Source: Oegoconia quadripuncta
Taxonomy: Eukaryota; Arthropoda; Insecta; Lepidoptera; Autostichidae
Direction of reading: 5' to 3'
Assembly: GCA_949316235.1 (NCBI GenBank)
Contig: OX438743.1
Coordinates: 20,705,771-20,769,770, forward strand
Length of the DNA: 64,000 bases
Below the pieces are notes generated by a model that saw nothing but the letters and a program-made list of their open reading frames with translations, was not told the origin of the DNA and did no database searches. Shown here piece by piece: positions 16,788 through 32,436 of this stretch; position 1 is the first letter of the stretch; each line of letters opens with the position of its first letter. A program made the position numbers and the translations under genes.

Positions 16788-18601
16788 CTAATTTTCCGTA
16801 TCGGAAATCTCTTCTTCTGGGATAAAATCTGGGCCTTCTTTGTCAGGTAAACTTTCGTACCATGGGTGTAGTTCTGCAGGTATAATCTTTTCGTTGCACA
16901 TTTTTAATAGATCTCTTTTCTTGGATTTAGTTATTGGAAGCTTATTGCTATACGCTTTTTTAAGAGAATAGTTGTTGTAATCAAAATCATCTTTGATTAC
17001 TTCAGGCTTGCGTTTTCTCAGATTTATTGAATTAGAAACAGCTGGTGTTTGTTTATCCGATATGTCGAGTTCTTTATAATCAGAAATGTAGTCATATCTA
17101 TAGAGAACTACATTAGGGCGTTTTTTCTCAAACCTGAAACATTTCACCTTTAGCCATTGCACCTTTCGTCCTTCGGTGTCAATTATTCTATTGACCATTA
17201 AGTGGTTTTTCAATTCTTTTAGATCCAGGATATCAGTATGGCTCATCACAATAGGTTCATAAGGCTTCTTTGGTGTCTTTTTCTTATCTAACTTTCGGTT
17301 CGATCTAGCCAACCTTATGACATTACAGAGATCAATTATTGAATAAATTGGCATAAGACGCATCTGATGTTCAATAGCGCTATGTATACTATCGACCTCC
17401 ATGTGTGTGTGTCCCGATTCTAAATACTTATGTTCGATCGCCTGTAGATGGGTAGTTTGAACTGCGTATAACATTAAGCATAACAGGAACTGGTTACGAT
17501 TTTGGCCTCCGCAGGTATCAGAGAATATGGATATTTCGGTAACTGTAGCCGGTAGACGTTGGATCCATAGGTACAGTGCAGTTCCCACTTCATCGCTTCC
17601 TTTTTTTCCATCCACTTCAGACCATAGATAGCAGATACCATCATTTGGGGATCGCGCTTCATAAATAGTAGCATTATACACGTTTAATTTACGAAGGTAG
17701 TAAAGCAGAGAAACATCACTACTTGGCAAATGCAACACTTTCTGTAAGTCAATCGTGATGGAGTTAAAATTGTCATCTTCATTCGCCCGAACTTTATCCA
17801 GTTTGCGGTATACGTTTATGGATACGGGTGTTTTAGATCCATCACTAGTACATTTTTCTATGTACAGTTCGTACATTTTAGATATGGAAAGAGTGGTATC
17901 TAAATACTTTTTAGACGAAGTTTTTCTGCAGTAATGTGACTCCATGGTGGGAAAAGACTCGATGTGATTTTTGATGAATTGTACATCTTCATCTTTGGTT
18001 TTATTGACTGGTTCGTGCTTACCACGTCTATCCTGTCCTTCGAAAGAACCTGATGTTCCCATTTCCGAAAATGCTTTATTGATCGGGCCATTCGAAATAC
18101 AAAGAGTGTTTTTGAAAAAAAATTCACATACCCTGATCTTTTGACCGTCCTGTTCAAAATAATAGGAGCGAGATGTAGTCCTCTTCCTGGTAGCATTTAC
18201 AAAGCGTCTTTGAGGCGCCTGTGCATTAACGTTCTTGAGTATGAAATCTTTCTGACGAGAATAATCTGATAGTGCCCAGTAAAACTTACAAATTTCCTTT
18301 CGGTCCTGCTCAGGAAATTTTAGCAAGCAATTTAGTTTACACTTACACTCTCCAGATTTAGGTGCTTTGGGAGGCTGTTCCTGCCTTTTATAGTTTTTGT
18401 AAGGCAAAGATTGTGAACGATTCCTTCTTTGCGCATTTCGATCATAAGTGTCCTCTCTTCGTTTATGCCATTTGGTAGTCTTGATTTTTTTGGCGGAACA
18501 ACTTCTACGTCAACGTCAATATTATCGCTGCTGTCTTCCGATTTATTTTCTGCGGGTACATCTTCAGGATTCTGCCAGTCAGGATCAGCAACCGAGTCAT
18601 C
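16788..18601 (-). CDS. Exon 4 (main domain) of the DUF7869-type gene
   Basis: Acceptor CTTGTAG, phase 0. It begins DDSVADPDWQNPEDVP, then loses one base at the A7 run. In the shifted frame it continues TTKWHKRREDTYDRNAQRR and the whole conserved body to TAG. The exon is 1814 bp, one base short of a multiple of three, which fits a single-base loss. An open frame beginning at a TTG at 18407 is only the part after the shift. Confidence 0.8.
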
Positions 18602-21600
18602 CTACAAGATCAGAAAACAAGTAAGTATCCAAGTAATTAGGTATTGTGAAGATGTGAGTGCGTGTGTGCATGGTTGTGTGAGTATGTGAGAATGTGAACG
18701 TGTGTTTAGGTACAAAGGTTTTGTAGATAGTGTGAGCAGTAAGTGTGGGAGTAGACTATCTACGTCTGCCTATCCCTTAACTATCTCTATGAATGCGGTA
18801 TATCAAGTAGTCATACTTTATAGGTAAGTACTTACAGTTAAATACAAGTCATCGTCTAGGGACACCACTTCGCGATAGATTCGATTATATGGTGGGCTGA
18901 TATTTTCAGAAACATTGTCTATAATCTGAATGAGAAAAAGTACAGAGTCACTTGTTGCTAATTGAAAATGGATATATATTTTTTTAATTCATAAGTCGTA
19001 AAGGTTTTTACATCGGATAAGAACTTGAGGATGACTTTATTTTCTTCTACTTCCGTTTCATTTTTCAGATTTCCTTTGTTTTGGGGTACTGGCCGTGAAG
19101 GCGGCGGCGTACCTTCGATAATATCAGTTGAGCACTGAAAAAAGTCATAAAAATTTCAACATAAAGTAAGTATAATATCTAGCAAGTAATTGCCAGAACC
19201 AGAAGGAGAAAGAGCTGGCATCAGAGAAGGAGGTAAGTGGGTCTACTTTTCTACTCCAACTTATCAAATAAACCAGGTAATCTTACCACGCAAGCAGCAA
19301 GCAAAGTAGCAAGAAAGTAAATAAGGTAGATAGATAAGTTTTAAAACATCTCACAACCTAAGCCTGGTGCCTATAATACAATCAAAGTTGCCTTAGGCCC
19401 TATAGGTACTAGGTCTAAGTATACAGGTATATAAACGACTTACACTCGTCAATGAGCTATCACTTCCTCCCAGGTAGGAATTTTACGTCAAAACAACGTT
19501 AGTTTAAAGTCGGCCGCTGACGTAATTGACGTTACAGAGTGACGTCTGACGGTTCCTGATATAACGTCAAAATGTCACGGGCACAAGACGTCATTCATAG
19601 ACGTCACAAAGACCAATTAATTGTAACCCAAAAACGACCTTTCATTCGACTTAATTGAAACCAAATTGTGACGTCCTGGGACGACAAAATCTCACGGGCA
19701 CAAGACGTCATTCGTAGACGTCATAAAGACCAATTAATTGTAACCCAAAAGCGACCTTTCATTCGACTTAATTGAAACCAAATTGTGACGTCTTGGGACG
19801 ACGAAATTTAAACCAAAGTATGACCCTTGATTGATCAGTTTGCGACGTCAAAGAGATTTATTTGAGACTAAAGTGAAACCTATTTATGACCAATTTGCAA
19901 CGTCTAAGTGACGTATTTTTAAAGACCTTATACTGATGTATTTTTTTACCTAGAAATGACCTTTAACAGACCATTTTGTAATGTATTTGAAACCTAAAAC
20001 AGACCAATGACGGATCAAGCTGTATCGTCTAGGTAACGTAAGTATATGAAGCCCAATTCTGAGGAATATTTAAGTCTGGCAGACGAATTTGGAACCTAAA
20101 ACTGCCCTTTGTCAGTCCAAGTCTGTATTTTTCTTTTAAATTAAAGATCGACCCGTCGAATAGGTTGATTGAACAAGCAAACCATAATAACGAGTCCATA
20201 CGCGTCTGAATTAATGCATGACCAAAGGTCTCGACTAACTATATAAGGTTTCAATAGTAATATTACTTTAAGTCTACAAGACCTCATGCTTTGGTTTCAA
20301 ATACATTCATCATACCCTTAGGTAAGGAATTCAATTGTGAGGTTTGTGTGCTGAGAAGTAATAATTAAGACCAATGCATGAGAAATAATAACCGAATTTA
20401 TTACCTGTTATAAAACACAAAGACATTATCACAAAGTGATATTCATAGCCATGCAGAGATAGAGAACTATTTGATGGGGGCGTTTTATTTGAAAGTATAT
20501 AATAAAATTAGTGTTATACAATTAAAACATCAGAGGTATGAAAAAAGGCATTGAAAAAGGTTCTCTACAATTCCACCAACTTTCTGTAAACTATTCCTAC
20601 TACTATTCTGTTACTTTTTAAGTTACATAACCTCCAAATTTCTACGTTTAGTACCGATCGTCACCACTTATCAGAATAGTTGGTGGGACTGTACATATAA
20701 ATCTACCTAAACTTCCCCCATCTAACATTGTTTAATTAGTTACTTTTTTGCCATACACAAACATTATGTAGTATTATGTACAATGTCTAGAGTAACCCTG
20801 AAAATACTTATCAGCTCCGAAAAGTTATATAACTCTGTTTATAAGCAATATACCGGCTGTCAGTATTAAAAAATAATGCAGTGTAGAGTATGCCATAACT
20901 AGAGCTATACAATTAGTCACTATTCAATTATGTCTCATATACTTAATAATGAATGAATCATTGAGTGAGATATTACATACCACTGCAACAGGAAGTAATT
21001 TATAAAATATAAAGTAACACTAAAGTCAAAACAAATAGGGTAACACAGACTCAAAATCAAATTTTGTGATTGGATCTATTTTGGCCCGACCCACTCTTTA
21101 CTCTGCGAGATATGTATTACTTAGCATGTACTTTCTTCATTCTTATATACCTATATTTGTTAAGATATTGAAACATTTATACTCATAAGTAACCGACTTA
21201 GCCTGTTTTTAGCCCGGTCCCATCATACACTTATAGGTGGTACATACCACTACATCAATGCTAAACATGTCTTCAAAGATATTAAAGTAGACAGGCGGGC
21301 TGGGGTGGAATCTATATGCGCAGTTGTATCTAAGAGAGAAAACCACAAAATCTATACTTTATGTATGTAGGTACAAATAGTCTCGAGTCAAACTTTTGAC
21401 TATTTTGAGTTCTTTGGGTTATTTGAGTAGTTCGAGACTATTTGTACCTACATACATAGAATTTAATTGCACCAAAAACGTGATGTAAGAAGAGCCGATA
21501 CATACAATGATTAATTATATCGAGCTATTAAGTGAATTGAAATCTGTATTGTCAGGTCTAACTGGGAAAACTGTGTAGTAAGTACTACACCTGTCAATAC

Positions 21601-24600
21601 AGATTTCAATTCACTTTAATAGCTCGATATAATTAATCATTGTATGTATCGGTTCATTCGCTCTGTAACAGCATAGTATTGTATATATCGTGGTATGGAT
21701 AGGGTCGGGCTAATAACACAGGTTGACCCGGTCATCCATAAGTACTTCAATATCTTTTACACATGAACTACACTGGGACAGGCCACTCATTAGGTATGCT
21801 TAAACTATTTTTATTACATTATCCACAATTATACACTAGTCTACAATTAAGAAATTCGAATTTTTATGTAAGTGCTTAATAAAAATATTTAGAAAAAGTT
21901 TGTTATTCTATGTTAGAATGAACCAAAGGGAAACATAAATATGATTCATTGGAGTCAGGAATAAGAACACATTTTGATGTTACATCTGCTATTGTTAGAG
22001 TGTTTAAATTTTGTGAAATATTGTCAACAATAAAAATATTCAGAATAGAAGAATCAAATGGATACTTATAGAATGAAAGGTAGGTATTGAATTCTTTTCC
22101 ATATAAAACCACGGTTTTATCATTTTTTCTCTCTAGAATATTATGTACTTGGAAAACTTTATTTTCCTTCGTCAAACAATAGCAATCAGCTTCTCTATGA
22201 GAGTACACGTATATACTAAAATCTTTACAAATCAGTTTTTTATAACCATTGTATTGATAATGTTCAACACTGGGAAAAGGTCCCAAATTATTTTCATTGC
22301 AAATTAGTACTTTATGTTCAGAATTTATCTTAGGTAATAAACTGCTTTCTTTCAAACGTCTATAGATTTGTTGAAGTGGTTTGTTAGGTGACCTAACCAT
22401 ACCTTTTAAGGTCTTTAGGTAGTTTTCAAAGGGGAATGCTGAAAAATTATCTAAAACACCATGTAATCGTGTCTCTTCACTTAAGTGACACAATGAGTGA
22501 ACATTATAGACTAGAAATTTTGAACCATAAATCTTTTCCGAGTGTTTAATAAACATGACTAAGATTTCTTGAACAAAATCATGCCCTAGATTTGTTAAAT
22601 GTCTTTGTGAACATAGAATGGAAATGCCACAGTGAAATAGAAGAAAATTTTCATAGAGTGATGTACGCAAAACATGTTTCAACACAATAGGACCAAGATA
22701 AATCAAAAACATACGAAATTCCGTAGCCTTCCATCGAGACAAGTCATGCAAACCACGAGGTAATCTATTAAATTCAATAGGCATACACTTCCTACAATTT
22801 ATAAGCCGTTCAGATATTTGAGTCACTAGTCGACTTTGTAAGCGAACAGTCAGTTCACCGCTCACCCAAGCATTCAAAAGTTTTTTCATAACGCCTAAGC
22901 ATACAGCATGCATATAATCTATAGGGAATGCTGACACCATACCAATTTGAAGTCTTAATAAGGGCGATTCACCAAGGTGATGATCTTCATCTGATTGTCT
23001 TTCAAATTGTAAGTCAGTTCTCCGTGTAGCTCTGACACTTCGATATATTACACGTCCTTGTACATAATCCCCTGATTCAAGACATTTGTCACAAGCAGAA
23101 TAACCACCATGGGATTTGGTACATTTGATCATTGCCCTGGCTGGTGCATCACAAACAAAACTGTGAACACTAATAGTGAAATGTATGTTTTTAAAAGAAA
23201 ATCCTTCGTGTAGCAATTTGGAAAGCTCGTTTACAAAGTCGACTAAAAACTTATTTAGAGGGGTAGGTTTCGATTCTCCATAATACAGAGCGATGACAAA
23301 AGGCTTTGCAGACACATAATTATTCTTTATCAATCCTAGAATTGGCCATAATTGTGAATTCCTACTTTTAAATAGGGGAAGTCCATCCACATTAAATGAC
23401 ATTACTATTTTATTTTCCAATTTCGATAAATCACAATCATTTAATATGTTTTCTAATTGATGCTGTAAACCTATATAAACTAATTCACCCGAGTCTAATA
23501 CTTTAGTTGATATTTGCAAAGGAGTTTTAAATAATGTACGACTATTCCTAGGCAACTGAGAACAAATTGGTGCAAGAATTTTTAGGAGACAATCTGTAGC
23601 TTTATGTGAAATACTATATTGAATACCCCATTCCCTCAGTTTAAAATATAAGTTAGCATCAATTTTGTTTAGAGTTTCATTAGTCTTGTATGGACTATGA
23701 GAACACTGTTGGTCAACATGGTCAAGTGCATAGGATGAAGAACTTTCACCGATGCTAGCAGAGTTACACTCAACATTAAAACCTGATAAAATAGGGGAGA
23801 CATCATGAATTTGATTGAGATTAGAAGTAGTCCCTACATTGTTATTGGTCGAAGGTATATTTAGTTTATCATAGATTTGTTCATGAATAGGATTGAGAAT
23901 AGAACAACTAGTCCCTACATTGCCATTGGTAAAAGGTTGCTTATCAAATTCTACAGTTTTCTGGATATCATTTATAATGCCCAGTTTTATAGATCTAGCC
24001 CTTCTCTGCATCTGACGATGACATACATCATTTTTATTTTTATATGGAATCTTTTTCATTATTTATTATTGGGTCTAAAACTGGCTGTGTTAATCAAACT
24101 AGCCGATATTGATGAACGGTGTTAACGTTCTCTGGTGCGTACTTAATCCAGTGTCAAATCAGTTTTAGTAGATATTGATGCACAGCGTTTAACCCTCTCT
24201 GGCGCGTGTTTAAGCCATGTTTTTATGGCATCTTCAATATCTTTATGGCTTGCCTCTGGATGGTGTATCCTTACACTATCTAAAATAAAAAAATCATCTT
24301 AGATCAAAACTTGTCACATTCCTTACATAAAAACTATTATTTAAAAATGTTCATAGGTTCTTAAGATTTTGCATCTGATTATATGTAGCTATTTTGCCCA
24401 AAAAGCACCCATGAAATATCTATAATCTTTTTATCCCTTGGTGAGGAAGGCCCACCTCCTTTTCTTCCAACCCATAGAAAGATACCAACATGAGTAAGAT
24501 TTTATTAAAGCCATTTACCTATCACAACTGCTCGAAGGCGCAAGTCAGCAAATGGTTTCTTTGTGGATCTTTTCCCATAAAAATTAAATTGTGCAGCTAA

Positions 24601-27600
24601 AGAATCTACCATCACATGTTTAAGAATCCTGTACACTCTAATATGAAAGTCTCGGCCACCCAGAGAGCTTAAGAATGTAATCTGGAAAAAACATCTATAT
24701 TTAAGTAAATGGAGTTGGTTAAATATATCATATTTACACAAGGAAAGTGGTGTGACAATTTAGATTACCAGTTCTGTTGATCTTGTTTGGTCTTGTAGTA
24801 AATTTTCTACTTCCACTAAATCCTCTTCAGTTTGTAAAGGAAACTTAAAATCAATAGGTGTCAGTGCTGCAGACCGAATTCCTTTTTCTTTTAAAAGTGC
24901 AATTATTTGTTGGTTTTGTGCTTGCAATGAGGCAAGCATAGATACCACTTTTTCCTCATAATCTGGAAAACAAGTGAACTTAATCAGGTAATGGTATACA
25001 GGGTGAATTTGAATTTGTGTAATTCCCATTAACTTGTGACGCCACTCTTGAATACGAACAACTTACCCCAAGGAACTCAAAAAATTTGATTACCCATACA
25101 AAGTAAACCATTCTGAAACCACTTTTAGTATGGAAATCTAACAATTTTCGGTTGCTGACTCCACTCCTGATTATGAACAACTTTCGACTAGAGACCATAG
25201 CCGAATTCAGCCGAAAATTGTTGGACTTCTTTACTATATGAATACTAAAGGTGGTTTTAGAATTGTTTACTGTGTATGGTTAATGGAAAATGTTTTGATC
25301 TAATTAGGCTATGGGTCCTAATGGAAAGTTGTTCGTAATCAGGAGTGGAGTCACCAGTAAACAGGAATTACACTAACCTACACCTATAACATTTTGGTAT
25401 GGACCCTAAAAAAGACGAAAAAACGCTGTATGTGATACCTACATGACAGTTTGTAACTGGAGTTGTGATTGCTGTTTATTTCTACATCGTCACATTGTTG
25501 GTCAGATTTGGGGGAGCTTCCTGCACCCGGAACTGTAACAAATAGCGACTTTTAAAGGTACAAATATTTTTCAACGTAGAAAGAATCAATTAATTCAAGA
25601 CATTTGAAGTAAAAAAATATTAAATTTTATATTTAAATTATGTATGTATTACAAAAAAGAATCGAAAAACAACGAAGCAAACTATTCTTTGTGATTTCGA
25701 AGTGGGGCTTGTATCAATCATCCTGTGATGATCGTCATTGTGAATCAAAAACCATACCCTGTATAGATAGCTTACCTGTTCGCTTATCATTGGGTCTAAA
25801 TACACATCCAGAAAGTGCTTGCTTTGAAACGCAGTTTCTATTAGATATTTCTGTAGAATTATGAGACTTTGCTGCACTCAGGCCTGCAATTCATATCCAA
25901 GGTTATGTACTACACAAACGAGAGATAATCACTTTAGTGCCAATGTAATTCCAAACCACTCAATATAATTTGCTAATTCATAATGAAAACTCACACCCAA
26001 TAATATGGCAAGCACAGTTTAATGTTAAATAATATGATGTGGATGAGAATGGAAACCTATAGCCTATTAGTGATGTAGTTGGTCAAGGTAGGTGCAGTTT
26101 GTGGATGCCGATTTAGCCCGAGCAGATTGATCGGACCTCAGCCAGGAGTAGTCAATGGCTAGATAAAGCACACTATCCCAGTAAATGCCTATTCACCCCA
26201 AAATACAAATGTTTCATCGGTCTTCATTTGACTGAATTAATGAACAAAACGTGATTTCCACATTGCCTTAAGTAATAATTACTTGTATTTCCCCAAAATT
26301 CAATGAGGTAAAATATTTGATATCTGAAATATTCTAACCAGCCAGAGAAATCTAATAACTATAGCAGACAGGTGCACCACCAACTGATTTAAACAGGTTG
26401 TCAATTACACGAGTCAAAGCAACAATACAAAACTTACAATGCAAAAACTGTTTTTTCAAAGCAGGAGGGCGATCACTTTCATTCTCTGAATCGGAAATAT
26501 GTTGTTTGCGATAAAGTTTGCGCTTTGGCCTTTCTAATTCTATTTCTTCAGCATCTGTTTGCAGGTCAGAGGTGACTTCCACCAATTTTAACTTCTTTTT
26601 TGCTTTCTCTAAGTCATCTAGCAACACACATATAAACACGACTAAATGCAAGTATGGCAAAGGGGGTCACAAATAGTTGTTGGGCGTCTACGTGGTATCA
26701 AATTTAGCGATCGAACGCAAGTGAGCTAAACGGCAAATTACTAGCGATCGAGCGCAAAAATTTTTACGTGTAAGGTTATATAAAATTAAAGCGAAGTTTC
26801 CGCGCCTTCAACGTTAAGTAAGTCTTTGCGTATTGTAACCAATGATATTATATTTAATGTAACAGTCCGGAAACCAAATGCATGGTCAAGGTTGTTTCAT
26901 AAAAAAAAATATTCTAAGCCCTTTTCGTTCCTGTCCCCGTTTGTTACACTTCAATATCTAACGGTTAGTAGGTAAGTCAGCTTGCACCTTAACCAAATCT
27001 GTTATAATTAACCCCACAAAACAACAAAAAGACACACCAAACCACAAAAGCCCTGCATATAAGATCTTGAACACTTACCAGTTTCATAGAAACTTCGTTG
27101 AATTCCATACGTTTTCCAGGTTGAGTCTGGTGATGAACTTAAAAGGTATTTATTGTATGATTTTCCTTCTTTTACTGGTGGCCAGAACACTTCTTGTTTC
27201 CGTGGTGTGAACCAATCGGCACGCACAATAGAAACCGAAGCTCCATCTTGTTCTAAAAATTGCACTATGGAATACATTACAAACAAATTCTTGCTTTAAC
27301 AGTTGGACGGGCGGCGTCCATCGATCGAGAGGGAGCGTCGATATTTGGTGTTGCCAGATACTATAATTTGAATTCCCTCCTAGTAGTCGGTCGGAGAGTT
27401 TAATATCAAAAACTTTTCCATAAAAAAGACAACCATCGAAATCTCTTGAATCAGCTACTATATAGTAAAAAAATAATTTAACTGAAACGCGCATATCTCT
27501 CAATCAATCATTTTCTATGTTCACTGACGTAATTATTATTATTTCTAAATAACAAAAAATTCTTTCGAATTGTATCAATTGTGCAAATGTATTAGTTCAA

Positions 27601-30600
27601 GAGCATGCTCATTTCAAGCATGCTCGTGAATGAGCATGCTTTTTAAGCAAACAATACGGAAGAAAAAGAGAAGAAAAAAAAATTGGGCCCGTAATTGAAT
27701 AATCCCAGCGAAATACTTTTGGCGCGAAAACAAACTTGCACGCACGAATAACTGACATACTAGCATGTTCATAACCAAACCTGTTCAGACGTGATTAAAG
27801 CACGCCCCCTGTTACCCCCGCATCAGGTAGCATGCCCAAAAATTGCACGTCGATCGATTTGTAAGCATGCCCATATAGGCATGCTCGATACTAGCAATGG
27901 TTTCGACACACATACCACTAGATAGCACTTGCGCATTAATAGCTTGCTTTCGTGCTACTTATAGCATGTCTATCTGTACGTTTAAGCTTGCTTGTCAATC
28001 GCCCAGAGAATGTTTTAACCCGCGGCAAAAACTAGGGGTGTTATGTGTTTGACGGCGTTGTGTGTGTGATTGTGCATGATTGTGTGTGTTGTTTTGTGTG
28101 TATGTCCAGTCTTTGTCTGGACGTATCTAACTAATGCATGAACTGATTTGAGCTTAGTTTCTTTTGTATTAAGTAAGGGCACAGGTTATAAGCTTATAAG
28201 TCAGGTTTGATGAAAATCGGTTAAGGCGTTTGGAAAATATTTAGGTTTTAACGCAGTTATTCGGTGTATTTGGATGAGATTATAGTCTTTCAGGGGTTTT
28301 TAAATTTTAAGTTTATTGTCATGTGACATAAGTATTGTTTCTGAGGCAATATTATAACGAAGGCCTTGCAAAAACTACACAATTATAAAAAGAATTACGC
28401 GAATCAACCGCCAAATCTCGGAATTATCGGTGTACATACATTAAAAAAACATTCAAGCGGCCGAATTGAGAAACTCCTCCTTTTTGAAGCCGGTTAAAAA
28501 GTCAAAATAGGGGATAATGATAGGTATTTCACGCGAGGGAATAATAATGTTATTCATTCATTATTGCACCCATAAACATAAAAATAATATTTAACATATA
28601 TAGCTAAAATATACAAAGGCGGTTGGTCTATCGCTGAGCAATTTTCTTTATTCGGCCTCACGCAGTTACAAAGTTTTATGTAGTTTGTTATGTCGTTTAA
28701 TTGTGCAATTCAAAGTATGTGATTGATCGTTTACTAATACTTGTATTACCAGTGATGACTTATGGCACAGAAACGTGATCTCTGACTGTGGGGCTTATAA
28801 GAATACTCAAAATCACACAACTTTTGAAAGGGCAATGCTCGACGTTACGCTACACGATCTAATCAGGTATGAAGAAATCCGTAGATGAACGTAAGTCTCG
28901 GACATAGCCCAGCGGATTAGTAAGTTGAAGTGGCAATGTGCAGGGCACATAGACTCGAAGAACTGATTGGCCGGGCAATACAGTGCTCGAGTAGAAACCA
29001 CGCATCGGCAAGCGCAACGTAGGACGTCCACTCACAAGGTGGACGGACGACCTGATGAGAGTCGGAGGAGGTCGCTGTATGCAGGCTGCTTCCAGTTAGT
29101 CGCTCTGGAAATCTATGTGAGAGGCCTATGTTCAGCAGTGGACATCGGCTCTGGCTGATATAAAGATAATGATTTATCGTTCCACCACTATTGTATATAT
29201 ATATGTGACATTAGTTCGTTTTTAGTTTATTGAGATACCTACGCGCACGCACAGTATCTGTGATTTCATTGTGAAATGCTGACAAGGAGAATCAATCAAA
29301 CTAATAATAAATAATACTAAATATTTTTGACAAGTGTGTATTGGTGTAATGTAAGTACTAGTTTTTTTTAATAAAATCGTCAATATCCAAATAGTGTAAT
29401 AAAAAAACACAAAGACGCTAGAAGACGCTAAAGAGTTTGTGCGCTAAGCTGTTCTAAACCACGCCACCGATTTTGATACCGTTTTTCTTACGGAAGATTA
29501 ATATTTTTTTATGATTGACGGAATTTATATGTAATACATGTATATTATATTTAAAAAGTTAATTGCACCGGTGCGAAACCGCAGCAGGTCGCTAGTTTAT
29601 AATCTAATAACACCCACCGCTACATAAAGATGGGGAGATGTTTCGATGCTAGCAACACAAGTAGCACTTTACAATAGTGCTCACCAACGGACACCAAGAG
29701 GTTTTCCTGTATTTCGCGGCTAAATCATTTAATCATTTACGGTATTATTTAGTGAAAGTTTCATAAATACCAAAAATTTTTTATCTAATATCAAGTGGAG
29801 TAGATTTAAATGTTACGACTCTAATAAGTATTTGCAATTTAACTGTAAACGCTCGATAATAAAAAAAATGAATAATCTCCGCCCATCAATAATTTTATTC
29901 AATATTATCTATGAGGATATTTACTTCCTGTTGCATTTTTTAAAGTTCCCCTTTCTTTGGAAGAACTGGAAGGCAAAGGATGGTCAATCTATAAAGCCAA
30001 GGGGTGCAATGTTTGAATCATGATCGTTGGGCTTCCATATTTGTAAATAAATGGTTCAACAATGTGAATAATACTTTTTGAAAATGCTAACTTTTGAAAT
30101 GCTATCTTGAATCTGTAATTTTCATATGCACAAGTAAAAGTGAACGACTCAAGGCTTACTCAGAGTCATAACGCTTACTTGTATATTTTTTTGGAACAAG
30201 TTTGTACTTTCAGACAGGCAACTGCACTTGAGTTCATACAGTCTGGTGTTTTAATTTTATTATTACTTTTGTCCCGTAGCAATAATCTTCTATAAGAGGG
30301 CAATACCTTACGGAAGATTTTAGCGGCTTCTTTTGGAAACGAACACAAAAGCTCAGTATTCCCGTCTTCACTTGTGTAGTCAACGGCTCGACATATACTA
30401 GCAACGCGACGTTATTGGAAATGCGAATACATCGAGACCAGCTTGTACTAAGTATAAGTCTTGATATTTAGGGTCTGCGGCCGCCTGTACACTACAATCA
30501 ATAAGCGCCAACAGCCTTAGGGTTTTAAGTTTCTATTCTTTGCTACACACTATAAATTTTAAGACATCAAACAGTAGTCAAATTGAAGACATCTAGAAGA

Positions 30601-32436
30601 TTCTGCTTTAGCTCTTTCTAAGACTTTTAACGTTCATCTAATTAAACACGTCCTACGGCTTCTAATACTTTTAAAACGTCCAATATTCATCTAGTTTAAG
30701 ACGTCCATAAGACATATTTTTAGATCCATTTAAAACATTCAATATTCGTCTAATGGAGTACGTCATTGAGACGTCTATATTCGGTAAATTTTGTGACGTC
30801 TAATAATTGTCCATTTGAAACATCTCTAAGACGTCTATATTAGATAAGTTTTCAGACATCTAATATTCTTCTAATTAAACACGTCTAAATGACATTTACT
30901 TTAGATGCATCAATGTCAATCTAATTGAAGACGTCCTTACCACGTCTATTTTAGATGTGTTGTGAGACGTCTAATCCTCGTCTAATTAAAATCAACTAAT
31001 GACGCCTATTTTAGGTCAATTCAAAGACGTCCAATATTCGTCTATTTGAAGATGTCCTTAAGACGTTTATATTAGAACCTTTTTAAGACGTATCATGTTA
31101 AAACGCTTAGTTTGGATATGTTTTCAGACATCTAATATTCGTCTAATTGAAGACACCTCTAAGACGTCTTTGATAGGTAATATTTATGAGGTCCAATATT
31201 CGTTTTTTTGAAGACGTCCTTAAGATGTCTATTTTAGATAACTTTTGTGACGTCTAATATTCGTCTATTTGAAAACGTCTATTTCTATATCTTCTTAAGA
31301 CGTCCAGTATTCGTCTAATCGAAGACGTTTCTAAGACATCTATTTTAGACAAGTTTTGAGACGTCCAATATTCGTCTAATCGAAGACGTTTCTAAGACGT
31401 CTATTTTAGATACGTTTTGAGACGTCCAATATTCGTCTAATCGAAGACGTTTCTAAGACGTCTATTTTAGATAAGTTTTGAGACGTCCAATATTCGTCTA
31501 ATTGAAGACGTCTTATAGACGTTTATTTTAGATAATTTTGAAGAAGTCCTATATTCGTCTAATTGTAAATGTCCTTAAGACGTCTACATTAGACATTTTT
31601 TAAGACGTTTCATATTCGTCAAATTGAAGACGTCTATAGGACGTACGGTGTTGGACTGTAACGACTGTCACGTCAAAAGGGCGGAGATAAATAACGTGAC
31701 TTTTACGTTTCTTTAATGACGTCCCTTATACGTTTATTGTAGACGTCGTTTAGAAGTACGTCATGGGTCTGTAACGTGCAATACGTGATAATGACGTCTT
31801 AGGTCTTGTCGCTTGCACGTCCCTGACGTCACCTTCCTACCTGGGCTGAAAGCTTTCTTTTTCGTTCATCACAACAGCCAGTTGCTGGAGGCAAGACGTC
31901 CTGTCAATGAAAATACCACCTTTAATAAACGAAGGTACTAAGTACCATATTAGATTTTGTAGATAGGTACCTAGGTATCATCAGATGTATTGGTAGTGAA
32001 TGCGTACCTACCAGATCAATTAACAAGCGACATAATTTAGAACGAGGTAAGTACCTACCTAATACATCGAGGTAATCCTTCGCGAAGCAAGAAAGTAAGT
32101 AGATAGGTAGGCGCTATACACATACATGCATTATGTAGATGGAAAAATTCCAAAAAGCAGTACCTAGATGTGTAGGTAAGCCGGTGTACTTATTTTAGGT
32201 ATGTAATTATATAGACAGAAAAGAGGATCACGAAATGTATGGTGGTGGTCTCATTTTAAATTCATCACAAAAATGTTAAATGTAAAAATACTTACATTTT
32301 CCGTTGACGCTTCCTTGAAATTATCACGGTTTTCAATGTTCTCCTTATTGAAGTTCAATTGGTCTAACATCTGTCTTCCCCGCCCTTGTTTAAAATTTTT
32401 GTTTCGCTGCATTTTGGAAGAAATCATTATCTGCAT
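16788..32436 (-). CDS. DUF7869-type protein gene, four exons, one frame break
   Basis: Exons on the minus strand: 32436-32296, 19134-19012, 18925-18836 and 18601-16788. All junctions are phase 0 with good AG/GT signals, for about 722 codons from the first ATG. The N-terminal part is acidic. A basic Cys-containing segment (CKCKLNC) follows, then the body with RRGKH, FPTMESHYCRKTSS, LWSEVDGKKGSDEV, SDTCGGQNRN and LESGHTHMEVDSIHSA. These motifs, in this order, mark a family of uncharacterised arthropod proteins annotated as DUF7869. The fold is often thought RNase H-like, but the role is unknown. Exon 4 is one base short in an A7 run (18485-18491), so the annotated frame shifts there. Intron 1 is ~13 kb because it carries the 12.4-kb transposon. 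Family assignment is by motif memory. The gene may itself be of transposon origin. Confidence 0.8.
18485..18491 (-). other. Frame break at an A7 homopolymer
   Basis: The upstream exon frame (VDVEVVPPKK) and the downstream body frame (TTKWHKRRED) meet at seven adenines on the coding strand, and eight would restore one frame. It is either a genuine disabling deletion or a homopolymer assembly error. Confidence 0.7.
18836..18925 (-). CDS. Exon 3 of the DUF7869-type gene
   Basis: 30 codons, phase 0 at both ends, acceptor CTCATTCAG and donor GTAAGT. It encodes an acidic linker (SENISPPYNRIYREVVSLDD). Confidence 0.75.
19012..19134 (-). CDS. Exon 2 of the DUF7869-type gene
   Basis: 41 codons, phase 0 at both ends. 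Acceptor TTTTTTCAG, donor GTAAAA (weak at +5). It encodes CSTDIIEGTPPPSRPVPQNK and a Glu/Lys-rich tail. Its upstream partner is exon 1 at 32296-32436, across the transposon. Confidence 0.7.
19469..19490 (+). repeat. Left terminal inverted repeat of the 12.4-kb element
   Basis: CCCAGGTAGGAA then TTTTACGTCA. It pairs with 31824-31845. CT precedes it. Confidence 0.8.
19491..20170. repeat. Left subterminal GACGTC array with a 117-bp tandem duplication
   Basis: About nine GACGTC hexamers occur, often as AGACGTCA or TGACGTC. Two near-identical 117-bp units lie at 19575-19691 and 19692-19808 (start TCACGGGCACAAGACGTCAT). Beyond ~19850 the units decay to GACC-rich sequence (GACCAAT, GACCTTT). Subterminal repeats of this kind bind transposition proteins in plant CACTA elements, and that role here is inference. 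Confidence 0.7.
20171..21360. other. Non-coding 3' region inside the 12.4-kb element
   Basis: AT-rich sequence with no gene or known repeat, between the left array and the hairpins near the end of the transposase gene. Confidence 0.4.
21361..21457. repeat. Inverted repeat hairpin
   Basis: ATGTATGTAGGTACAAATAG and TCTCGA at 21361-21386 are mirrored at 21432-21457 (TCGAGACTATTTGTACCTAC then ATACAT). The loop is ~45 bp. Confidence 0.75.
21495..21652. repeat. Long hairpin / MITE-like inverted repeat
   Basis: Arms of ~63 bp (21495-21557 and 21589-21652) are almost perfect reverse complements, with ends CCGATACATACAATGATTAA. It lies about 250 bp past the transposase stop codon and may be a nested MITE or a structural 3' element. 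Confidence 0.75.
21903..24059 (-). CDS. tnp2-like (Transposase_21 family) transposase, 718 aa
   Basis: A single uninterrupted exon from ATG at 24059 to TAA at 21903. The first ~140 residues are low-complexity (Asn/Ser-rich). The conserved core contains FNVDGLPLFKSRNSQLWPIL (~222-241), a VCDAPARAMIKCTKSHGGYS segment with a following CDKC Cys pair (~302-326), DEDHHLGESPL, FPIDYMHAVCLGVMKKLL (~378-395), RWKATEFR and FSAFPFENYLKTLKG (~539-553). The Asp of VDG, the Asp of CDAP, the Asp of IDYMH and the Glu of PFEN are candidate catalytic acids, by inference. Family role: cut-and-paste transposition of CACTA/EnSpm-type elements in the nucleus. It lies 83 bp downstream of the DUF4806 gene on the same strand. 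No frameshift or stop interrupts it, which suggests recent activity. Confidence 0.88.
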   Translation of the reverse strand: MKKIPYKNKNDVCHRQMQRRARSIKLGIINDIQKTVEFDKQPFTNGNVGTSCSILNPIHEQIYDKLNIPSTNNNVGTTSNLNQIHDVSPILSGFNVECNSASIGESSSSYALDHVDQQCSHSPYKTNETLNKIDANLYFKLREWGIQYSISHKATDCLLKILAPICSQLPRNSRTLFKTPLQISTKVLDSGELVYIGLQHQLENILNDCDLSKLENKIVMSFNVDGLPLFKSRNSQLWPILGLIKNNYVSAKPFVIALYYGESKPTPLNKFLVDFVNELSKLLHEGFSFKNIHFTISVHSFVCDAPARAMIKCTKSHGGYSACDKCLESGDYVQGRVIYRSVRATRRTDLQFERQSDEDHHLGESPLLRLQIGMVSAFPIDYMHAVCLGVMKKLLNAWVSGELTVRLQSRLVTQISERLINCRKCMPIEFNRLPRGLHDLSRWKATEFRMFLIYLGPIVLKHVLRTSLYENFLLFHCGISILCSQRHLTNLGHDFVQEILVMFIKHSEKIYGSKFLVYNVHSLCHLSEETRLHGVLDNFSAFPFENYLKTLKGMVRSPNKPLQQIYRRLKESSLLPKINSEHKVLICNENNLGPFPSVEHYQYNGYKKLICKDFSIYVYSHREADCYCLTKENKVFQVHNILERKNDKTVVLYGKEFNTYLSFYKYPFDSSILNIFIVDNISQNLNTLTIADVTSKCVLIPDSNESYLCFPLVHSNIE
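24092..24219. repeat. 65-bp tandem duplication at the DUF4806 C-terminus
   Basis: Copies at ~24092-24156 and ~24157-24219 share AATCA..., GATATTGATG, a TCTCTGG block and TTAA. On the minus strand the upstream copy encodes WLKHAPERVKR in frame. The second copy encodes the like WIKYAPENVNT, but in another frame after the stop, so the present C-terminus was set by the duplication. Confidence 0.6.
24143..27277 (-). CDS. DUF4806-domain accessory protein of the transposon, 356 aa, seven exons
   Basis: Exons on the minus strand: 27277-27079, 26617-26438, 25883-25776, 25532-25443, 24962-24769, 24681-24519 and 24279-24143. All phases join and give 356 codons plus TAA. The start is ATG at 27277 (MYSIVQFLEQDGASVSIVRA). 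The N-terminal block (DWFTPRKQEVFWPP...STWKTYGIQR) resembles the small N-terminal module found before DUF4806 in many insect and cnidarian proteins. A basic Lys-rich/acidic linker with KRKLYRKQH follows, then a coiled-coil-like stretch (ASLQAQNQQIIALLKEKG), then DUF4806 across exons 5-7 (FLSSLGGRDFHIRVYRILKH ... KKPFADLRLRAVV). The biochemical role of DUF4806 is unknown. Its place just upstream of tnp2 on the same strand suggests a DNA-binding or helper role, analogous to TnpA. The exon 3 acceptor choice (25883 versus 25873) is uncertain. Confidence 0.8.
24519..24681 (-). CDS. Exon 6 of the DUF4806 gene (domain core)
   Basis: Acceptor TTTTTTCCAG, donor GTAAAT. It encodes ITFLSSLGGRDFHIRVYRIL and the GKRSTKKPFADLRLRAVV segment, the most diagnostic part of DUF4806. 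Confidence 0.8.
24769..24962 (-). CDS. Exon 5 of the DUF4806 gene
   Basis: Acceptor TTTTCCAG, donor GTAATC. It encodes YEEKVVSMLASLQAQNQQII (heptad-like) and FKFPLQTEEDLVEVENLL, the entry to DUF4806. Confidence 0.75.
24997..25395. mobile_element. Foldback MITE in a DUF4806 intron
   Basis: The left arm (TACAGGGTG..., GTGTAATTCC, ACTTGTGACGCCACTCTTGA) and right arm (reverse complement GTGTAATTCCTGTTTACTGG then TGACTCCACTCCTGATTACG) pair over ~150 bp around a short centre near 25190. It lies wholly within intron 4. A partial copy is at 37741-37935. Confidence 0.7.
25443..25532 (-). CDS. Exon 4 of the DUF4806 gene
   Basis: Acceptor TTGTTACAG, donor GTAGGT. It encodes PGAGSSPKSDQQCDDVEINS. The split codons at both ends agree with the neighbouring exons. 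Confidence 0.65.
25776..25883 (-). CDS. Exon 3 of the DUF4806 gene
   Basis: Donor GTAAGC. The acceptor is AATTGCAG at 25883 or a second AG ten bases downstream. Both keep phase and differ by little. It encodes STEISNRNCVSKQALSGCVF. Confidence 0.6.
26438..26617 (-). CDS. Exon 2 of the DUF4806 gene
   Basis: Acceptor GTTGCTAG, donor GTAAGT. It encodes DLEKAKKKLKLVEVTSDLQT, then a basic nuclear-signal-like ERPKRKLYRKQH, then an acidic SDSENESD. Confidence 0.75.
27079..27277 (-). CDS. Exon 1 of the DUF4806 gene
   Basis: Begins at ATG 27277, donor GTAAGT. It encodes the N-terminal module with SIVRADWFTPRKQEVFWPPV. The start is set by family similarity and the lack of an upstream in-frame ATG. Confidence 0.78.
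27278..28744. promoter_or_regulatory. Upstream region of the DUF4806 gene with a GCATGC cluster
   Basis: Between ~27600 and 27990 there are eight sites like (A/G)AGCATGC(T/C)C: near 27602, 27619, 27631, 27760, 27829, 27863, 27879 and 27966, several perfectly palindromic. A GT-rich tract follows at 28060-28115. The clustering near the 5' end of the transposition genes suggests promoter or autoregulatory binding sites. That is inference, and no TATA box is assigned. Confidence 0.5.
28745..29160 (+). pseudogene. RTE-type LINE 3' coding remnant nested in the transposon
   Basis: The degenerate + reading contains RIGKRNVGRPLTRWTDDL and ends EAYVQQWTSALAD, the usual C-terminus of insect RTE reverse transcriptases. 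Several stops and frame shifts occur. It is an old or dead fragment carried inside the 12.4-kb element. Confidence 0.65.
29161..30489. other. Non-coding 5' region inside the 12.4-kb element
   Basis: AT-rich, with no gene recognised. A short repeat-like tail (GTGCGAAACCGCAGCAGGTC) is near 29570. Small open frames have no motif. Confidence 0.4.
30490..31823. repeat. Right subterminal array of ~61-bp GACGTC-rich units
   Basis: Degenerate tandem units of about 61 bp run through ~30560-31640: GAGACGTCCAATATTCGTCT, AATCGAAGACGTTTCTAAGA, then CGTCTATTTTAGATAAGTTT. The best-preserved copies are at ~31340-31510, and units toward the gene side are more diverged. About two dozen GACGTC hexamers are visible. 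Closer to the terminus the spacing changes and TGACGTCA appears. The array is much longer than the left one. These are likely transposition-protein binding sites by analogy with CACTA subterminal repeats. Confidence 0.75.
31824..31845 (-). repeat. Right terminal inverted repeat of the 12.4-kb element
   Basis: TGACGTCA at the inner side, then CCTTCCTACCTGGG, followed by the flanking CT. It pairs with 19469-19490. Confidence 0.8.
32296..32436 (-). CDS. Exon 1 of the DUF7869-type gene
   Basis: Donor GTAAGT directly after ACGGAAAAT, phase 0. In-frame ATGs lie at 32436, 32427 and 32412. The one at 32412 has the best Kozak context (A at -3). It encodes NKNFKQGRGRQMLDQLNFNK and an Asn/Glu-rich tail. 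It is separated from exon 2 by the 12.4-kb transposon plus ~0.8 kb. Confidence 0.65.

What the first reader, a model, noticed from the sequence alone, without database searches (positions are those of the whole stretch)
19469..31845. Apparently intact 12.4-kb tnp2 transposon with non-canonical CCCAGG termini and a second, spliced gene
Seen: matching 22-bp ends, CT on both flanks, an uninterrupted 718-aa transposase, a seven-exon second gene with all phases agreeing, and organised subterminal arrays. Known: tnp2/Transposase_21 proteins move CACTA/EnSpm elements, whose ends normally read CACT(A/G) with 2-4 bp duplications. Inference: this is a recently active autonomous element of a divergent tnp2 lineage in a lepidopteran, with its own terminal sequence and a DUF4806 partner.
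Basis: partly seen in the sequence, partly recalled or inferred. Interest (0 to 1): 0.85.

Follow-up and report, generated by a model that had tools for sequence, protein, structure and literature searches.

The report
Recently mobile TRC-type CACTA transposon
This is an intact, very recently moving "cut-and-paste" jumping gene of an insect (probably a moth), belonging to a group described in 2006 whose ends begin with CCC; what is new is mainly the set of identical intact copies and a likely DNA-binding role for its second protein.

Summary
Window 19469-31845 is a complete 12,377-bp DNA transposon: 22-bp ends (19 of 22 identical), CT on both flanks, a 718-aa transposase, a seven-exon DUF4806 gene, GACGTC-rich subterminal zones. 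The same assembly holds seven full copies (one on a chimeric contig). All 6 independent loci carry a matching 2-bp duplication, both proteins are identical in 7 of 7 copies, and two pairs of copies at different loci differ by no base. One insertion has a 500/500 empty site elsewhere in the assembly. Recent movement is shown; ongoing activity is inferred.

The claimed novelty fails. CCC ends, 2-bp duplications and a Transposase_21-type enzyme define the animal TRC (Transposon Related to CACTA) families published in 2006, with CCCAG and CCCTAGTAGC ends in mosquito and beetle. This is a new member of that kind.

Inferred here: the transposase core has a RAG1/Transib-like fold with a BAH-like tail; DUF4806 looks BEN-like (DNA-binding), so the partner may bind the GACGTC arrays as plant TNPA binds its ends. 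A second family in the genome, 52% identical in transposase, shares the anatomy: CCCAGGTAG ends, TA duplication, DUF4806 gene beside the transposase.

The parts
19469..31845 (.). complete transposon, 12,377 bp
   Evidence: both ends and 2-bp duplication replicated at 6 independent loci
19467..19468 (.). left copy of target-site duplication CT
31846..31847 (.). right copy of target-site duplication CT
19469..19490 (+). left terminal inverted repeat, CCCAGGTAGGAA...ACGTCA
   Evidence: 19 of 22 identical to the right end
31824..31845 (-). right terminal inverted repeat
19541..19849 (.). left subterminal zone: 8 GACGTC sites; overlaps a 117-bp direct repeat, 2.1 copies (19564-19807)
   Evidence: parts retained in the 0.4-0.5 kb derivatives
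30700..31830 (.). right subterminal zone: 23 GACGTC sites; includes a 61-bp-period array (31127-31644)
   Evidence: only about the outer 97-113 bp is kept in the short derivatives
21903..24059 (-). 718-aa transposase, single ORF; D225, D304, E545; C323/C326 and H521/H525; core 135-578 RAG1/Transib-like, tail 583-709 BAH-like (predicted)
   Evidence: identical protein in 7 of 7 full copies
27079..27277 (-). DUF4806 gene exon 1 (ATG at 27277)
26438..26617 (-). DUF4806 gene exon 2
25776..25883 (-). DUF4806 gene exon 3
25443..25532 (-). DUF4806 gene exon 4
24769..24962 (-). DUF4806 gene exon 5
24519..24681 (-). DUF4806 gene exon 6
24143..24279 (-). DUF4806 gene exon 7 (ends with the stop codon at 24143); 83 bp before the transposase start
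25014..25376 (.). nested inverted-repeat block in intron 4 of the DUF4806 gene (61-nt arms, 80%)
21353..21655 (.). nested inverted repeats downstream of the transposase (40-nt arms 98%, 34-nt 91%, 31-nt 94%)

Best explanation
An intact, recently and probably still mobile autonomous cut-and-paste transposon of the animal TRC group (Transposon Related to CACTA) within the CACTA/EnSpm-Mirage-Chapaev-Transib clade. Shown: complete structure, 2-bp duplications, identical copies at different loci, an empty site, intact coding in all seven full copies. Inferred: the transposase, a DDE enzyme with a RAG1/Transib-like core, recognises the CCCAGGTAG ends, excises the element and joins it at a 2-bp stagger; its BAH-like tail may contact nucleosomes. 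The second protein, whose DUF4806 domain has a BEN-like (DNA-binding) predicted fold, binds the GACGTC-rich subterminal zones and helps pair the ends, the role TNPA plays in maize En/Spm (recalled). I put identity and recent mobility at about 0.95, the RAG1/Transib-like catalytic core at 0.9, and the DUF4806 end-binding role at about 0.5.
Confidence: 0.85

Rival explanations
1. A canonical plant-type CACTA/EnSpm element whose ends were misread, with true ends CACT(A/G) elsewhere.
For: DUF4218/Transposase_21 relationship.
Against: Six independent insertions end exactly at CCC...GGG with differing flanks and matching 2-bp repeats, and the empty site lacks exactly the element plus one TT.
Confidence: 0.01
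2. An old, host-domesticated transposase locus, not a moving element.
For: Intact coding sequence; DUF4806 relatives exist as annotated insect genes.
Against: Identical copies at several loci with flanking duplications, an empty site and short derivatives.
Confidence: 0.01
3. The element moved recently but is now silent, and the second protein is a passenger or a regulator rather than an end-binding protein.
For: No expression data; derivatives without the long right array appear to have moved; BEN-domain proteins are often transcriptional repressors (recalled), so a regulatory role is plausible.
Against: Coding intact in 7 of 7 copies; the DUF4806 gene is kept beside the transposase in a second family of this genome and in beetle gene models.
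Confidence: 0.3
4. A categorically new superfamily of transposon with its own end sequence.
For: The window transposase does not reach Transposase_21; CMCT elements mostly have CA..TG ends (PMC12730594).
Against: Published TRC elements have CCC ends and 2-bp duplications (PMC1636069; PMC4298943); the TRC motif is present.
Confidence: 0.03

Closest known systems
TRC elements (SmTRC1 of Schistosoma mansoni; 9.2-kb Aedes aegypti and about 5.2-kb Tribolium castaneum elements), DeMarco et al. 2006, PMC1636069
   Same: CCC at both ends, 2-bp duplication (there in 7 of 14 SmTRC1 copies, with three paralogous empty sites), Transposase_21-type enzyme, motif [LVI]Dx[LM]HxxxLG, two Asp about 80 residues apart (79 here), CxxC, a tandem-repeat region, more than one protein product. 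Aedes end CCCAGTCAAC and Tribolium end CCCTAGTAGCACC resemble CCCAGGTAGGAA here and CCCAGGTAGCACA in the second family.
   Different: SmTRC1 is about 4.5 kb with a 54-bp repeat and a 560-aa product. Its other products, in tandem with the ORF, are called not detectably conserved; here a conserved DUF4806 gene lies upstream of the transposase. The paper takes its catalytic Glu from another domain than E545 here.
Spongebob / EnSpm-4N1_HM (Hydra; short copies in Bombyx), PMC4298943
   Same: CCCAG ends, 2-bp duplication.
   Different: The paper could not define its transposase because of stops or frameshifts; the Bombyx copies are short. Here the genes are intact.
Maize En/Spm (CACTA)
   Same: Two-protein logic and motif-rich subterminal regions (recalled; PMC1636069 discusses TNPA and TNPD).
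   Different: CACTA ends, 3-bp duplication, unrelated second protein (recalled).
Transib / ProtoRAG / RAG1
   Same: Predicted fold of the catalytic core, residues 135-578.
   Different: About 9-12% identity; Transib makes 5-bp duplications and has different ends (recalled).
Plavaka, ESTA (PMC12730594)
   Same: Same broad CMCT clade; PlavakaA also makes 2-bp duplications.
   Different: PlavakaA ends TGT..ACA, PlavakaB CATCA..TGATG, ESTA has TA duplications, as stated in the passages seen.

Membership tests
TRC (animal CACTA-related), PMC1636069 | termini beginning CCC | tested here: met
   CCCAGG at both ends of 7 of 7 full copies
TRC (animal CACTA-related), PMC1636069 | 2-bp target-site duplication | tested here: met
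   6 of 6 independent loci; empty site with single TT
TRC (animal CACTA-related), PMC1636069 | Transposase_21 domain | tested here: inconclusive
   window protein shows no Transposase_21 match at E <= 1 but DUF4218 at 27.8 bits, cut-off 27; of 29 aligned members 10 match Transposase_21 and 28 DUF4218 at E <= 1
TRC (animal CACTA-related), PMC1636069 | eumetazoan motif [LVI]Dx[LM]HxxxLG | tested here: met
   IDYMHAVCLG; motif definition
TRC (animal CACTA-related), PMC1636069 | motif I around the first Asp, [ILV]x[ILVF]x[ILVF]xxDGxxx[FY]x(7-9)WP[ILV] | tested here: inconclusive
   IVMSFNVDGLPLFKSRNSQLWPI fits at every fixed position but one (Met for [ILVF]); compared by eye
TRC (animal CACTA-related), PMC1636069 | grouping with published TRC transposases in a tree | not tested
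   the published sequences were not fetched
canonical CACTA/EnSpm | CACT(A/G) termini | tested here: not met
   termini are CCCAGG
CMC/CMCT clade | C(2)C and H(3-4)H between second Asp and last Glu | tested here: met
   C323/C326 and H521/H525 between D304 and E545; definition from PMC12730594
BEN-domain fold (second protein) | BEN fold in the DUF4806 region | tested here: inconclusive
BAH-domain fold (transposase tail) | BAH fold at residues 583-709 | tested here: inconclusive

The most novel reading that the evidence does not exclude
Insect TRC elements are a distinct two-component transposition system, still mobile today: a RAG1/Transib-fold transposase with a chromatin-reading BAH-like tail cuts CCCAGG ends, while a BEN-fold DUF4806 protein reads GACGTC palindromes in the subterminal arrays. 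DUF4806, a domain of unknown function noted as abundant or enriched in some animal genomes, would then be largely a transposon-borne DNA-binding domain.
Probability: 0.4. Interest if true: 0.65.

Novelty: new member of a known kind. Interest (0 to 1): 0.42.

Why it matters
TRC elements are known mainly, in the papers seen here, from SmTRC1 (a full-length copy, transcripts and empty sites) and from single or consensus elements in other animals. This genome offers several complete copies, some identical over 12.4 kb, plus short derivatives with defined ends, which makes the transposition mechanism of animal CACTA relatives directly testable and could yield a gene-transfer tool. If DUF4806 is a BEN-like end-binding domain, the high DUF4806 counts noted in Hydra (PMC7642931) and the enrichment in an ambrosia beetle (PMC13270666) may be transposon genes rather than host adaptations (inference).

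Tried and rejected
Viral contigs: 12 stretches matched peptide patterns, 0 encode a relative (single-sequence query, so close relatives only). PDB by sequence: no credible relative of the transposase (49 rows at E 0.16-0.6, nearly all tubulin; profile, two interferon rows) and none of DUF4806 (0 rows). Paper searches: CCCAGG with EnSpm, 0 papers; DUF4806, 4 papers, passages of two seen, neither mentions CACTA or EnSpm, the other two not opened; transposase with BAH domain and CACTA, 0; BEN domain with transposon-encoded/EnSpm, 4 papers, none holding 'BEN domain'; BEN domain with transposase/DNA transposon, 10 listed of 1,657, the one with 'BEN domain' has it in its reference list. Fused DUF4806-transposase proteins: only beetle (Rhamnusium) gene models; a search with the DUF4806 part of one gave 2 hits, the query itself and one firefly protein without a listed transposase domain. 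A third family's downstream end was not reached within 2 kb. Whether DUF4806 sits beside the other transposase families could not be tested: that genome search did not complete 15 times. Rejected: canonical CACTA, domesticated gene, new superfamily (see rivals). The C40 copy was dropped from independent counts: its left flank is C23's (7,937 bp, 100%) and its right flank the window's (9,971 bp, one mismatch), so the contig switches inside the identical element. Rows dropped: 9 of 17 loci gave no end pair; of the 8 with a pair, L025 repeats L036, L027 repeats L038 and L044 shares the flanks of L043, leaving 5 distinct, 4 of 5 with a 2-bp duplication (L036 fails, AC/AT). The first GACGTC control used mononucleotide shuffles; it was repeated with dinucleotide-preserving ones.

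Full report
What is there. Window 19469-31845 carries a 12,377-bp element with terminal inverted repeats CCCAGGTAGGAATTTTACGTCA / CCCAGGTAGGAAGGTGACGTCA (19 of 22 identical), flanked by CT on both sides. On its minus strand lie a seven-exon gene (27277-24143; 356 aa; six introns, all GT..AG, phases agree) and, 83 bp further, a single-exon 718-aa transposase (24059-21903). Both subterminal zones are rich in the palindrome GACGTC: 8 sites in the left 700 bp and 23 in the right 1,677 bp, against dinucleotide-preserving shuffle means of 0.24 and 0.60 (largest 2 and 3 in 200), and 1 site in the intervening 10 kb (mean 0.68). The left zone overlaps a 117-bp repeat (2.1 copies), the right zone a 61-bp-period array. 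In all four ends seen (this element and the second family below) ACGTC starts at position 17.

It is a mobile element, and recently moved. The window lies in an assembly of 622.6 Mb in 45 contigs. The left 132 bp matches 24 places, 8 at 100% including itself; the right 132 bp matches 21 places, 7 at 100%; the tool calls such counts lower bounds. Seven places have both ends, 12,373-12,377 bp apart. Six are independent loci with duplications CT (window), TT (C23), CG (C16), TA (C7), AT (C3) and AA (second C2 copy): 6 of 6. The seventh, contig C40, has TT on one side and CT on the other because its left flank is C23's and its right flank the window's; I treat it as an assembly chimera made possible by the identical element. 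Pairwise, the window and C23 copies show 0 differences and so do C16 and C3; C7 differs from these two by 2 substitutions and the second C2 copy by 6 plus one gap column; the two sub-families differ by 16-18 substitutions and 18-19 gap columns. At an assumed 2.9e-9 changes per site per generation (recalled, a butterfly estimate), zero differences in 12.4 kb puts a pair's common ancestor within about 42,000 generations at the 95% level. The transposase and all seven exons are identical in 7 of 7 copies. The joined flanks of the C23 insertion match C17:6284335-6284834, a 20.6-Mb contig, over 500 of 500 bases with a single TT: a perfect empty site. The simplest reading is that C23 is the other haplotype, so the insertion is polymorphic in the sequenced material; only 250 bp on each side were compared and the wider comparison did not complete. 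The C3 copy sits in an ORF whose downstream half matches DUF1759 (78.6 bits), a domain of BEL/Pao gag proteins (recalled).

Deletion derivatives. Short elements of 412-496 bp keep parts of the left 465 bp and about the right 97-113 bp. Of 17 loci examined, 8 showed an end pair, 5 of them distinct, and 4 of 5 have a 2-bp duplication. They suggest which ends suffice for mobilisation and that the 61-bp right array is not needed.

A second family with the same anatomy. Among 62 scored transposase matches (of 87 candidates) in the genome are several other families. For one with 52% identity, the C10 and C11 copies are identical for 990 bp after the transposase and diverge exactly after CCTGGG. The C10 copy runs from 9129897 to 9138030 (8,134 bp), with ends CCCAGGTAGCACA, TA on both flanks, GACGTC near the ends, and DUF4806-gene exons upstream of the transposase with the same first exon boundary by tblastn. 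Only this one copy was read at both ends.

Comparison with the known. PMC1636069 (abstract, passages and sections 5, 6, 8, 9 seen) defined TRC elements: CCC-starting ends and 2-bp repeats in Schistosoma (7 of 14 copies, three paralogous empty sites), Aedes (CCCAGTCAAC) and Tribolium (CCCTAGTAGCACC...), a Transposase_21 enzyme, and a eumetazoan motif that this protein has (IDYMHAVCLG). PMC4298943 (passages) adds Hydra EnSpm-4N1 with CCCAGCCAAC and 2-bp repeats, and short Bombyx copies that PMC5704228 (passages) calls defective. What I did not find in the papers searched (listings, with passages of those named) is the DUF4806 partner, its BEN-like fold or the BAH-like tail; Repbase and Dfam were not available, so these may be recorded there.

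How it most likely works. Shown: structure, 2-bp joining, recent movement. Inferred with good support: DDE cut-and-paste by a RAG1/Transib-fold enzyme. Inferred with moderate support: a BEN-fold protein binding GACGTC-rich subterminal DNA to assemble or regulate the ends. The lepidopteran host is likely but indirect (the best second-protein relatives are moth proteins).

Noticed in passing
window 16788-18407 (-): 539-aa ORF with a DUF7869 domain (45.6 bits) about 1 kb left of the element; possibly another transposon-derived gene.
   Followed up: partly
G000 contig C40 (L009, L010, L050, L051): A 40.8-kb contig joins the left flank of the C23 insertion to the right flank of the window insertion inside the identical element: an apparent assembly chimera.
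   Followed up: yes
own genome, rows: Besides this family, the genome holds several more related transposase families with multiple open copies (about 52%, 39%, 34% and 33-41% identity), one split by an apparent intron.
   Followed up: partly
G000:C17:16533837-16535952 and left end at C17:16549076: A decayed copy: transposase 95-97% identical with 2 TGA and 1 TAG, separated by about 10.7 kb from its left 1.7 kb; no right end matched there. It shows older rounds of insertion.
   Followed up: partly
window 25014-25376 and 21353-21655: Nested inverted-repeat blocks inside the element, in intron 4 of the DUF4806 gene and downstream of the transposase; present in the full copies, so older than their spread.
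   Followed up: partly
PMC7642931 and PMC13270666 (passages): DUF4806 is listed with high counts in a Hydra genome table and as enriched in an ambrosia beetle; these may be transposon-borne copies.
   Followed up: no
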